Assembly: GCA_020445415.1 (NCBI GenBank) | Contig: JAGRGP010000011.1 | Location: 1-64,000, forward strand | Length of the DNA: 64,000 bases | Direction of reading: 5' to 3' | DNA from: Gammaproteobacteria bacterium | GTDB taxonomy: Bacteria; Pseudomonadota; Gammaproteobacteria; Chromatiales; Chromatiaceae | Shown here: positions 18,570 to 23,031 of the stretch, one piece after another | How the letters are laid out: each line of letters begins with the position of its first letter | Position numbering within the stretch: position 1 is the stretch's first letter | Translations under genes and position numbers: made by a program | The notes under the pieces: model-generated | The model's input: only the letters and a program-made list of their open reading frames with translations | Database searches by the model: none | Told to the model about the DNA's origin: nothing

Positions 18570-20018
18570 ATGACAACCTCCAGAGGTCTGATTGGATTTT
18601 TTGCCTTATGCCTTGTCTCTGCAACTAGCGCCCAGGAGAATCAAGACTTTGATGTGGTCACCATGAATAATGGCGACATCTTTAACGGTAATCTGGTGCT
18701 GGAGCAGTTCGATATCGATACCGGATACGGAACGGTCGCTGTTTCTGCGGATTATGTGACCGATGTCGAGATCGATGCAGACCGACTGGGGGTTCGAATC
18801 CACACCCGGTTTGGGGACCGATTTCATGGCCGAGCCAAACACCCTGCGCTACGAATCATCCGGCCGCTGGAACCTACCCTGCCATTGGCGATCGCCGATA
18901 TCTCGACAATCCGGATTGCCCCACGGCCGCTGCGGATAAAAGGGCTCAACGCCGCCGACACCCTGGAGACCGTCAGCGGCGATCTGTTTGCCGCTCGGCT
19001 CATCAGCCGGGAACTGCTCTTGAAAACCCGTTCGGGATTACAACTGATCAACCTCGACAATGTGCATATCGTGGAGATTGAGTTGTCCCAGGAAGAACCT
19101 CTCGCACAAGTTACCTTTAACGGTGGCGACATTCAGCAGGGGCAGCTGTTGACCGAGACAGTCCGGGTTCATAGCCGCTATGGCGATACGCTCGATATTC
19201 CGGTGGAAAAGATTACCCGCATGGGTATCAGGGTAAATTACCGGGACAACGATAGCCCCCGGTTCAACTATCGTAAACAGGTACCTCAGGCTGCCTGGTT
19301 TCAAGACCGGCTGCGTGACGGAAATATGGGACCTGAGATGGTAGCCCTGCGGGGTGGTGCGTACACAAGGGGCGATAGCCGGGGAGATGACGACGAGTCG
19401 CCACCCCATACCATCAATCTCTCACCGTTCGCGATCGCAATCTATGAAATCACCTTCGAAGACTACGACCGGTTTGCCGCCAGTACCCACCGGGAACATC
19501 CGAATGACGAAGACTGGGGTAGAGGACGGCGTCCGGTCATCAATGTCTCCTGGGACGACGCCCGCGCATATGTCGACTGGCTGAGCCAGCAGACAGGCGA
19601 AACCTACCGCTTACCTACAGATGCGGAGTGGGAGTACGCTGCGCGAGCACGAAGCCAGAGCCGATTCTGGTGGGGCAGCGAGACAGGTATCGCGAGGGCG
19701 AACTGTGCAGGCTGTCAGAGTCTATGGGACGGTGAGAAAAGTAGCCCAGTGGGGCGCTTTCTCCCCAACAGTTTCGGCCTGCACGATACTGCGGGGAATG
19801 TCTTTGAGTGGGTGGAAGATTGCTGGGACAACCGTTTTTCGGAAGCCCCCCGGAACGGTGGCGCCCTGGTAAAGCCAGGCTGCGGGGTGCGGGTTATCCG
19901 GGGTGGGGCCTGGAGCTTTCCCCCTACGGAGTCCCGCTCCGCGAATCGGTGGCGTAATTTCCAGTCCAGGCGAAGTGACGACACCGGTTTCCGAGTGGTT
20001 AGAGAACTGCCAAAATAA
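18570..20018 (+). CDS. Secreted SUMF1 (formylglycine-generating enzyme-like) domain protein
   Basis: The 482-residue protein begins with a signal peptide (MTTSRGLIGFFALCLVSATSA) and is predicted periplasmic or exported. Residues about 25-220 contain beta-rich modules of similar form (TMNNGDIFNGNLV..., TVSGDLFAARLI..., TFNGGDIQQGQLL...), which I do not recognise as a named family. Residues about 240-480 form a C-type-lectin-like SUMF1/FGE-sulfatase domain (VALRGGAYTRGD, YRLPTDAEWEYAAR, VIRGGAW, TGFRVVRE). The catalytic cysteines of true formylglycine-generating enzymes are not apparent at the C-terminus, where the usual GFR-C-A reads GFRVV. A binding or structural role is therefore more likely than sulfatase activation. 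There is no sulfatase gene nearby. Confidence 0.8.
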   Translation: MTTSRGLIGFFALCLVSATSAQENQDFDVVTMNNGDIFNGNLVLEQFDIDTGYGTVAVSADYVTDVEIDADRLGVRIHTRFGDRFHGRAKHPALRIIRPLEPTLPLAIADISTIRIAPRPLRIKGLNAADTLETVSGDLFAARLISRELLLKTRSGLQLINLDNVHIVEIELSQEEPLAQVTFNGGDIQQGQLLTETVRVHSRYGDTLDIPVEKITRMGIRVNYRDNDSPRFNYRKQVPQAAWFQDRLRDGNMGPEMVALRGGAYTRGDSRGDDDESPPHTINLSPFAIAIYEITFEDYDRFAASTHREHPNDEDWGRGRRPVINVSWDDARAYVDWLSQQTGETYRLPTDAEWEYAARARSQSRFWWGSETGIARANCAGCQSLWDGEKSSPVGRFLPNSFGLHDTAGNVFEWVEDCWDNRFSEAPRNGGALVKPGCGVRVIRGGAWSFPPTESRSANRWRNFQSRRSDDTGFRVVRELPK

Positions 20019-20871: not shown

Positions 20872-21297
20872 TTAGTCGTCCGGCATCTGACCGGCAGTAG
20901 CGGCCTCTGCCTCATCCCGAGTGTAGAAACGGCCATGGCTAATGAATCCCGCGATCACCCCATCGCGGGCCGAGAGCACACTCCCGTTCTCGTCCCGTGC
21001 GGTAATCCATTCCTCCGGTAATCCGTCAAGCACATGAATCGGTGCCGGCCGGCCATCCGCAAAACGGGATACCACACTTTCACCGCTATCGGCGTCCATA
21101 AACGCGGGTACGAACCCCAGCTCCCGGTTGTTCTCGCTAACACCACCTGTGCCATCGAAATAAAGATTTTGGCGATGCAGTAGCTGCTCACTCAGCATTC
21201 CTTGCCGAACTACCCTTTCCCGCCGCTTGTCTGGCGACTCAGCTTGTACGTGCTCCACCTGCTCGTTGAATATTGGTTCCAATCGTCGACGCTCCAT
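20872..21297 (-). CDS. Conserved hypothetical protein, 141 residues
   Basis: Soluble protein with no named domain that I recognise. The N-terminal third is charged and helical (ERRRLEPIFNEQVEHVQAES); the rest has conserved-looking blocks GTGGVSENNRELGFVPAF, SRFADGRPAPIHVLDGLPEE and AGFISHGRFYTRDEAE. I have the impression of similar small unnamed proteins in beta- and gammaproteobacteria but cannot confirm it. The ATG at 21297 is preferred to the in-frame TTG at 21303; there is no obvious ribosome site. A sigma-54-type promoter lies about 35 nt upstream. Downstream it converges on the TSUP permease. Confidence 0.7.
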   Translation of the reverse strand: MERRRLEPIFNEQVEHVQAESPDKRRERVVRQGMLSEQLLHRQNLYFDGTGGVSENNRELGFVPAFMDADSGESVVSRFADGRPAPIHVLDGLPEEWITARDENGSVLSARDGVIAGFISHGRFYTRDEAEAATAGQMPDD

Positions 21298-21330
21298 AAA
21301 CAAAAACCCGATACTGCATATAAACTACAG

Positions 21331-21614: not shown

Positions 21615-21902
21615 CTAATCGTGGGCGATGGTTTTGTCCGTAAATAGGTAATCCTGCAACTCTTTATCAAAACTTGGATCCTGACGCCGAATCCATTCCA
21701 ACACCATCGCCGCGTGCTCCTTCTCCTCGTCACGATTGTGCGCCAGTATCGCCTTCAAGGCAGCATCACTGCAGGCGTCGACCCGTTGGTTGTACCAGTC
21801 AACCGCTTCGAGTTCTTCCATTAACGACACAATTGCCCGATGCATGTCACGGGTTTGATCGCTGAGTTCCGCTACGGGTTCGTGGTACCCTTCGTTCGCC
21901 AT
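21615..21902 (-). CDS. Encapsulin-type ferritin-like protein (EncFtn core, no targeting tail)
   Basis: A 95-residue, two-helix ferritin-like protein strongly resembling the encapsulated ferritin (EncFtn) of Rhodospirillum rubrum. The shared blocks are HRAIVSLMEELEAVDWY, QRVDA and ILAHNRDEEKEHAAM. The ferroxidase ligands of that family (Glu32, Glu62, His65 in R. rubrum numbering) correspond to Glu30, Glu60, His63 here, with Trp36 and Tyr37 also kept. Characterised EncFtn forms an annular decamer that oxidises Fe(II). This protein ends at LFTDKTIAHD right after the core, so the C-terminal encapsulation peptide is missing, and no encapsulin shell gene is in the window. The ATG has an AGGAG ribosome site. 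It lies downstream of oxyR on the same strand. Confidence 0.88.
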   Translation of the reverse strand: MANEGYHEPVAELSDQTRDMHRAIVSLMEELEAVDWYNQRVDACSDAALKAILAHNRDEEKEHAAMVLEWIRRQDPSFDKELQDYLFTDKTIAHD

Positions 21903-22098
21903 AACCGTTGTGCTCCTTCCGCTGTTGATTTGTTAGGCTTTGGCCAATAGCGTGCATCGGTCCAGCCCATGGAATCGCCTCCCGCCACCAGCGTGACGGC
22001 GGCTAGTTTCCCACAAGTGATGTGCGGACTGTAGTGTTTTCTTTCAAGTGCGGCGAATACCGTCCGGGCAAGCCGGCAGGTTTGGCAAATTACGAGGA

Positions 22099-23031
22099 TC
22101 AATCCGGAGCAGGAATATCGATGAGGCGCACGGTATTGGGCAGGTGCTCGCGGATCACCTGGGCAAACACTTGCAGTGCACCAATGCGCGGAAAGCTCTG
22201 GCGGAACACCAACGATACCCGCCGTTCCGCACCGGGGATATTCAGCTTGCGCGCAATAATACCCGCATCCGTCATCCACGCTCCCCGGGTTGCCAGCGCC
22301 GGCACCAAGGTAGATCCAAGCCCTGCTCCCACCAGTTGTAAAAGGGTCTCGAGACTGGCCGCCTGCAAATCCCCCATCTCGCCCCGAAATGGTCGCTCCT
22401 TGAGCCCGCACACCTCCATGACTTGCCCAGCCAGACAATGCCCTTCCGCCAGCAGCAGTAGATCGAGTTGTTCCAAATCCTGACGGCTAATTTCGTCCTT
22501 GGTGTACAAGGAGTGCCCCCGAGGATGCGCCAACCAGAAAGGCTCGTCGAATAGGGGAATCGCGTCCAGGTCGGCAGCTTCCACCGCCGTAGCTACCATC
22601 GCGGCATCGAGCTCATGATTTCGAAGCCGCTGAATTAACCGCTCCGTTATCTCTTCGGATAGCACCAGCTGCAGGTTGGGAGAACGCTTTTTGAGGGGCA
22701 GGATAATAAACGGGATCAGATAAGGGCTAAGAGTCGGGATTACGCCAACCCGAAAGGGACCGGACAGAGGATCGTGATAAGCCTGCGCCAACTGACCAAT
22801 GGCATCGGCTTGTTCCATGATCTTGCGCACATGATCAACGATAAGCGCTCCAATGGCCGTCAACTCTACCGAACGGCGGGTTCGCTCGAACAGCGTAACC
22901 CCCAATTCGGACTCCAATTTCTTGATCTGCCCGCTGAGAGTCGGCTGGCTGACGAAACAGCGCTCGGCCGCCCTGCCGAAGTGCCGTGTCTCAGCCAGGG
23001 TCATTACATATTTAAGGTCGCGAAGATTCAC
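22099..23031 (-). CDS. oxyR: Hydrogen peroxide sensor regulator OxyR
   Basis: LysR-type regulator of 310 residues. The N-terminal winged helix-turn-helix has FGRAAERCFVSQPTLSGQIKKLE. The sensing loop has EGHCLAGQVMEVCGL with cysteines at 199 and 208, the same positions as the redox pair of E. coli OxyR, so peroxide sensing is well supported. The start is a GTG with an AGGA ribosome site, beginning in the canonical MNLRDLKY. The encapsulin-type ferritin gene follows 196 nt downstream, and iron storage is a plausible but unshown target. Confidence 0.94.
   Translation of the reverse strand: MNLRDLKYVMTLAETRHFGRAAERCFVSQPTLSGQIKKLESELGVTLFERTRRSVELTAIGALIVDHVRKIMEQADAIGQLAQAYHDPLSGPFRVGVIPTLSPYLIPFIILPLKKRSPNLQLVLSEEITERLIQRLRNHELDAAMVATAVEAADLDAIPLFDEPFWLAHPRGHSLYTKDEISRQDLEQLDLLLLAEGHCLAGQVMEVCGLKERPFRGEMGDLQAASLETLLQLVGAGLGSTLVPALATRGAWMTDAGIIARKLNIPGAERRVSLVFRQSFPRIGALQVFAQVIREHLPNTVRLIDIPAPD

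What the first reader, a model, noticed from the sequence alone, without database searches (positions are those of the whole stretch)
21615..21902. Encapsulin-type ferritin without a shell gene or targeting peptide
The protein carries the full EncFtn core, including Glu30, Glu60, His63, Trp36 and Tyr37, but stops right after the second helix. Known EncFtn proteins carry a C-terminal encapsulation peptide and are usually beside, or fused to, an encapsulin shell gene. Neither is seen here. It may work free, or load into a shell encoded elsewhere by another route. The upstream oxyR suggests a link to oxidant and iron handling.
Basis: partly seen in the sequence, partly recalled or inferred. Interest (0 to 1): 0.6.

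Follow-up and report, generated by a model that had tools for sequence, protein, structure and literature searches.

The report
Shell-free EncFtn-type ferroxidase (s-FLP)
The gene encodes a small iron-oxidising protein of the encapsulin-ferritin family that naturally lacks the tail for entering a protein shell; it belongs to an already described, widespread class, and genome comparisons made here show that this class almost always lives in bacteria with no such shell, often among peroxide-defence genes.

Summary
Confirmed: 21615-21902(-) encodes an intact 95-aa EncFtn-family protein with every ferroxidase residue and no targeting tail; the genome has one EncFtn gene and no detectable encapsulin shell. 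This is not a truncation or a new kind. It matches Nitrosomonas europaea NE0167 (PDB 3k6c, also 95 aa) end to end and belongs to the class called 'Non-EncFtn' (2016) and 's-FLP' (2024). Open was whether s-FLPs are encapsulated; the 2024 review lists LFTDKPIAHE as a putative, uncharacterised targeting peptide. In 370 genomes of the window's class, 89 of 113 full-length EncFtn genes are short-tailed. Of their 89 genomes, 83 lack a family-1 shell, and the other six each carry a second, tailed or fused EncFtn beside the shell. All 22 tailed or fused genes lie in shell genomes. C-terminal residues L86, F87 and I92 are shared with EncFtns that have a separate tail. s-FLP is therefore most likely a shell-free ferroxidase ring. 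Of the 89, 22 lie exactly between RFO and DUF3501 of the aerobic rubrerythrin cluster, supporting a peroxide/iron role better than the window's oxyR, a neighbour rarely seen elsewhere. In this genome that cluster stands elsewhere, beside a second oxyR, without s-FLP.

The parts
21615..21902 (-). s-FLP gene: 95-aa EncFtn-family protein without encapsulin targeting peptide (stop codon included)
   Evidence: PF22277 152 bits; TIGR04535 139 bits; 3k6c NE0167 95 aa aligned 1-95 to 1-95; Foldseek best hit 3k6c
21618..21641 (-). codons 88-95, C-terminal segment TDKTIAHD: the conserved s-FLP end, proposed in the 2024 review as part of a putative targeting peptide
   Evidence: 49 of 89 class short-tail genes end exactly 8 residues after F87; residue counts; review Table 2
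21913..21918 (-). AAGGAG, likely ribosome binding site, 10 bases before the ATG
   Evidence: sequence
22099..23031 (-). OxyR-type LysR regulator (C199 and C208 present), 196 bases upstream on the same strand; possible regulator, inferred
   Evidence: PF00126 + PF03466; best NCBIfam model NF008361 OxyR 253.9 bits, below its cut-off of 329; cysteine positions

Best explanation
The gene encodes a shell-free EncFtn ('s-FLP'). As in its close homologue NE0167, subunits are expected to form a decameric ring in which pairs of subunits build a di-iron ferroxidase centre from E30, E60, H63 and Y37. The ring is expected to work free in the cytosol, oxidising Fe(II) (with O2 or H2O2) so that it cannot feed Fenton chemistry, and passing Fe(III) on rather than storing it, because an open ring has no cavity. 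It most likely serves peroxide and iron defence, in many relatives alongside the aerobic-type rubrerythrin / RFO / DUF3501 system. Shown here: fold family, residues, absence of tail, absence of shell in most carriers, gene neighbourhoods. Inferred: decamer and ferroxidase activity of this protein, its oxidant, the iron acceptor, regulation by OxyR.
For: Family and structure. Active-site residues conserved in 89/89 short genes apart from one W36 and one H55 change. Shell test: 370 class genomes at least 90% complete; short tails in 89 genomes, 83 without PF04454; the 6 with a shell have a second, tailed or fused EncFtn next to it; 22/22 tailed or fused genes are in shell genomes. By locus: 0 of 190 short-tail loci contain a shell gene, 45 of 47 longer-tail loci do (some loci are repeat views of one gene). 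Own genome: no PF04454, no PF19307. C-terminus: L86, F87 and I92 are also common in EncFtns that have a separate targeting peptide, so they look like core fold rather than a disguised tail. Oxidative-stress context: 22 of 89 class s-FLPs, in 16 families, lie exactly between RFO and DUF3501, all same strand, gaps 14-182 bp, against 0 of 24 other EncFtn loci; rubrerythrin, peroxiredoxin and thioredoxin reductase also recur.
Against: No biochemistry or expression data for this protein. EncFtn without shell oxidises iron but precipitates it in vitro (review), so an acceptor must exist; this genome shows only one divergent PF00210 ferritin-like protein above the cut-off. Shell families other than PF04454 and PF19307 were not searched. 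The genome is 96.8% complete in 185 contigs. In this genome s-FLP is not in the rubrerythrin cluster. The s-FLP/DUF3501 co-occurrence test is not corrected for phylogeny.
Confidence: 0.68

Rival explanations
1. s-FLP is encapsulated through an unrecognised signal in its conserved C-terminus (LFTDKPIAHE), which the 2024 review lists as a putative targeting peptide.
For: The segment is conserved and ends precisely in many genomes; review Table 2; the 3k6c decamer resembles encapsulated ones.
Against: 83 of 89 carriers have no family-1 shell; the six with a shell carry a tailed or fused EncFtn for it; L86, F87 and I92 are shared by EncFtns that already have a separate tail.
Confidence: 0.07
2. 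The gene lost its tail by frameshift or assembly error, or its shell lies in the unassembled part of the genome.
For: The assembly is in 185 contigs, 96.8% complete.
Against: No targeting motif in any 3' frame; the same end in independent genomes including an experimentally solved protein; every class genome with a shell has a tailed or fused EncFtn, and the 45 longer-tail loci hold the shell itself, whereas this EncFtn's flanks are assembled over tens of kb in a genome where the shell model finds nothing.
Confidence: 0.03
3. s-FLP is mainly a peroxide reductase or partner of rubrerythrin, receiving electrons from RFO, rather than an iron-handling ferroxidase.
For: RFO - s-FLP - DUF3501 order in 22 of 89 class genomes, rubrerythrin next to RFO; RFO proposed as electron carrier for aerobic-type rubrerythrin.
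Against: The ferroxidase-centre and entry/exit residues of iron-oxidising EncFtns are all kept; three quarters of class s-FLPs lie outside the cluster.
Confidence: 0.17

Closest known systems
NE0167 of Nitrosomonas europaea (PDB 3k6c), s-FLP class of Eren et al. 2024 (PMC11202242); 'Non-EncFtn' group of He et al. 2016 (PMC5012862)
   Same: Same length (95 aa), end-to-end alignment at about 80% identity, same kind of C-terminus (IAHE / IAHD), no targeting peptide
   Different: NE0167 has L instead of W at position 36; no functional difference known
EncFtn with targeting peptide (Rhodospirillum rubrum Rru_A0973, Haliangium ochraceum Hoch_3836)
   Same: Core fold, ferroxidase, entry and exit residues
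   Different: Tailed EncFtns carry 27-47 residues after F87 with a targeting peptide and are found with a shell gene; the window gene has neither
Aerobic-type rubrerythrin cluster RBR - RFO - DUF3501 (Cardenas et al. 2016, PMC5114695)
   Same: A frequent genomic setting of s-FLP: 22 of 89 class genes lie between RFO and DUF3501
   Different: In the window's genome the cluster is on other contigs and holds no s-FLP

Membership tests
EncFtn-like (PF22277) | Score above the curated cut-off | tested here: met
   152.3 bits against 27
EncFtn-like (PF22277) | Ferroxidase residues E, E, H, Y (R. rubrum E32, E62, H65, Y39) | tested here: met
   E30, E60, H63, Y37
EncFtn-like (PF22277) | Decameric ring with ferroxidase centre at the subunit interface | not testable with these tools
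   Inferred from 3k6c and 5da5; only a monomer was modelled
s-FLP / Non-EncFtn | EncFtn core without long C-terminal tail or targeting peptide | tested here: met
   8 residues after F87; no TP motif
s-FLP / Non-EncFtn | Groups with other short-tailed proteins rather than with tailed ones | tested here: met
   Falls in a group of 83 short-tail and 2 K-rich-tail rows without tailed EncFtns, SH-aLRT 90 (below the 95 mark)
Encapsulated EncFtn (family-1 encapsulin cargo, FLP-TP) | C-terminal targeting peptide | tested here: not met
Encapsulated EncFtn (family-1 encapsulin cargo, FLP-TP) | Shell gene adjacent or in the genome | tested here: not met
   No PF04454 in the genome; the model rings in 21 class genomes and 3 controls
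OxyR (upstream gene) | Redox cysteines C199 and C208 | tested here: met
OxyR (upstream gene) | Score above the NCBIfam equivalog cut-off | tested here: not met
   253.9 bits against 329, though its best model

The most novel reading that the evidence does not exclude
s-FLPs are a functionally distinct, non-encapsulated branch of EncFtn that acts as a fourth component of the aerobic-type rubrerythrin peroxide system (RBR - RFO - s-FLP - DUF3501), so EncFtn rings have a physiological role outside encapsulins, contrary to the 2024 review's listing of them as encapsulated.
Probability: 0.4. Interest if true: 0.6.

Novelty: new member of a known kind. Interest (0 to 1): 0.4.

Why it matters
EncFtn is studied as encapsulin cargo. 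The counts here indicate that in this class most EncFtn genes (89 of 113) are of the short form, and that most of their genomes have no shell to enter. They give a concrete setting (peroxide defence, often inside the rubrerythrin cluster) in which to test what an EncFtn ring does on its own. They also make the proposed s-FLP targeting peptide directly testable and, on this evidence, unlikely.

Tried and rejected
The first script for shell genes in loci found no reference proteins and gave a void result; it was redone with working references. A first structure job used an alignment that included the 3k6c sequence, which is a database sequence and not one of the window's own; I noticed afterwards, did not collect it, and ran a clean one from window and locus proteins only. 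Considered and rejected: truncation or frameshift; plasmid origin (plasmid hits are few and below 80% identity); a conserved oxyR/s-FLP unit (this genome and one other with OxyR upstream). The short/DUF3501 co-occurrence (64 of 89 against 104 of 281 genomes, Fisher 1e-8) is reported but not relied on because relatedness is not removed. Short-tailed proteins are not strictly one clade: 6 changes on a poorly resolved 87-column tree against 23.7 for shuffled labels.

Full report
What is there. Window 21615-21902(-) is a complete 95-codon gene with a good ribosome binding site. It is an EncFtn-family protein: PF22277 152 bits, TIGR04535 139 bits, above both curated cut-offs. The predicted monomer has helices 14-42, 46-73 and a short one 77-85 (mean pLDDT 83); the best structural matches are 3k6c, then 5da5 and 5n5f. 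There is no targeting peptide in frame, in the other 3' frames, or by pattern anywhere in the window.

It is a known class. NE0167 of Nitrosomonas europaea (3k6c) is the same length and aligns end to end. He et al. 2016 put such proteins in a 'Non-EncFtn' group. Eren et al. 2024 call them s-FLP, note that encapsulation is unclear, and list LFTD(E/N)KPIAHE as a putative, uncharacterised targeting peptide. Relatives at 83-90% identity with the same kind of end occur in many species, mostly Gammaproteobacteria by their record titles.

Is it encapsulated? The genome has one EncFtn gene, no PF04454 and no PF19307 (that model finds 7 genomes in the class). I compared 370 genomes of the window's class, at least 90% complete, for EncFtn and family-1 shell, fetched every full-length EncFtn gene and read its C-terminus. 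Of 113 genes, 89 have 7-16 residues after F87 (49 have exactly 8), 21 have a tail of 27-47 residues that I classed as targeting-peptide type by pattern, one is fused to the shell, and two have a lysine-rich tail. The 22 tailed or fused genes are all in the 21 shell genomes. The 89 short genes are in 89 genomes, 83 without a shell; the other six each have a second EncFtn, tailed or fused, at the shell. In a separate reading by locus, no short-tail locus among 190 holds a shell gene, including 80 named loci averaging 15.6 kb, while 45 of 47 longer-tail loci do; the two without are the lysine-rich ones. G033, in the window's own family, has a tailed EncFtn with a shell in its locus.

The C-terminus. 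If LFTDKPIAHE were a targeting peptide its hydrophobic residues should be special to s-FLPs. L86 (88/89 against 21/21), F87 and I92 are common to both groups; A93 and H94 are the ones enriched in the short form. This favours a structural role; it is a sequence argument, not a binding test.

Tree. Short-tail proteins gather in one large group (83 of 90 rows plus the two lysine-tailed), with 6 changes of the label against a shuffled mean of 23.7; resolution is poor with 87 columns. A few short proteins lie among tailed ones, which would fit separate tail losses.

Neighbourhood. In 22 of 89 class genomes, from 16 families, s-FLP sits exactly between an Fe-S/CCG protein and DUF3501, same strand, gaps of 14-182 bp; in none of the 24 other EncFtn loci. 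Cardenas et al. 2016 named the Fe-S protein RFO and described RFO and DUF3501 as partners of the aerobic-type rubrerythrin; rubrerythrin is next upstream in several loci that reach far enough. The Cardenas paper does not contain the word encapsulin, and my paper searches found no mention of EncFtn in this cluster; a figure legend there lists an unnamed 'HYP' gene, which could be s-FLP. Other recurrent neighbours are peroxiredoxin with thioredoxin reductase (three class genomes) and glutathione-reductase-like proteins.

The window's own genome. Here RFO and DUF3501 are adjacent without s-FLP on contig C99 (31 bp apart). The rubrerythrin gene is cut by the contig end, and the ends of C18 and C99 share 44 identical bases within it, so they very likely join: oxyR2 is divergent from rbr - RFO - DUF3501. 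The s-FLP stands downstream of oxyR1, which is 58% identical to oxyR2. Two genomes of the same genus have s-FLP between RFO and DUF3501. So s-FLP has probably moved here, or been replaced, while staying near an OxyR gene; which of these is not shown.

Mechanism. The best reading is a free ring-shaped ferroxidase in peroxide and iron defence. Ring and activity are inferred from 3k6c and characterised EncFtns. EncFtns oxidise but do not store iron without a shell, so an acceptor is needed; this genome has one divergent ferritin-family candidate above the PF00210 cut-off.

Noticed in passing
L170 (G373) and L201 (G099), EncFtn gene 3' ends: Two EncFtns of one genus have a 31-35 residue Lys/Ala/Pro-rich tail (such as AEKPAKKPATKATKAKSP) instead of a targeting peptide, no PF04454 shell, and both genomes carry a family-2 (PF19307) shell elsewhere. 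Could be a nucleic-acid-binding tail; same genus, so perhaps one event.
   Followed up: partly
G000:C18 end and G000:C99 end (L251, L249): The rubrerythrin gene of this genome is split over two contig ends that share 44 identical bases; together they suggest oxyR2 divergent from rbr - RFO - DUF3501.
   Followed up: yes
G385:C1:314086-314265, G060:C28:31480-31575, G035:C5:169028-169117: Remnants of EncFtn genes (partial or with internal stops) in genomes of 1.2-1.9 Mb, suggesting decay of the gene.
   Followed up: no
window 18570-20018(+): 482-aa protein with a C-terminal FGE-sulfatase (SUMF1-like, PF03781) domain and an N-terminal part without a Pfam match.
   Followed up: no
window 20872-21303(-): 143-aa ORF downstream of s-FLP with no Pfam or NCBIfam match; found beside s-FLP only in this genome among the loci examined.
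   Followed up: partly
L006, L009, L014, L016, L038, L047, L087: In several relatives s-FLP lies directly downstream of PstB and PhoU (phosphate uptake regulation), an unexplained second recurrent setting.
   Followed up: partly
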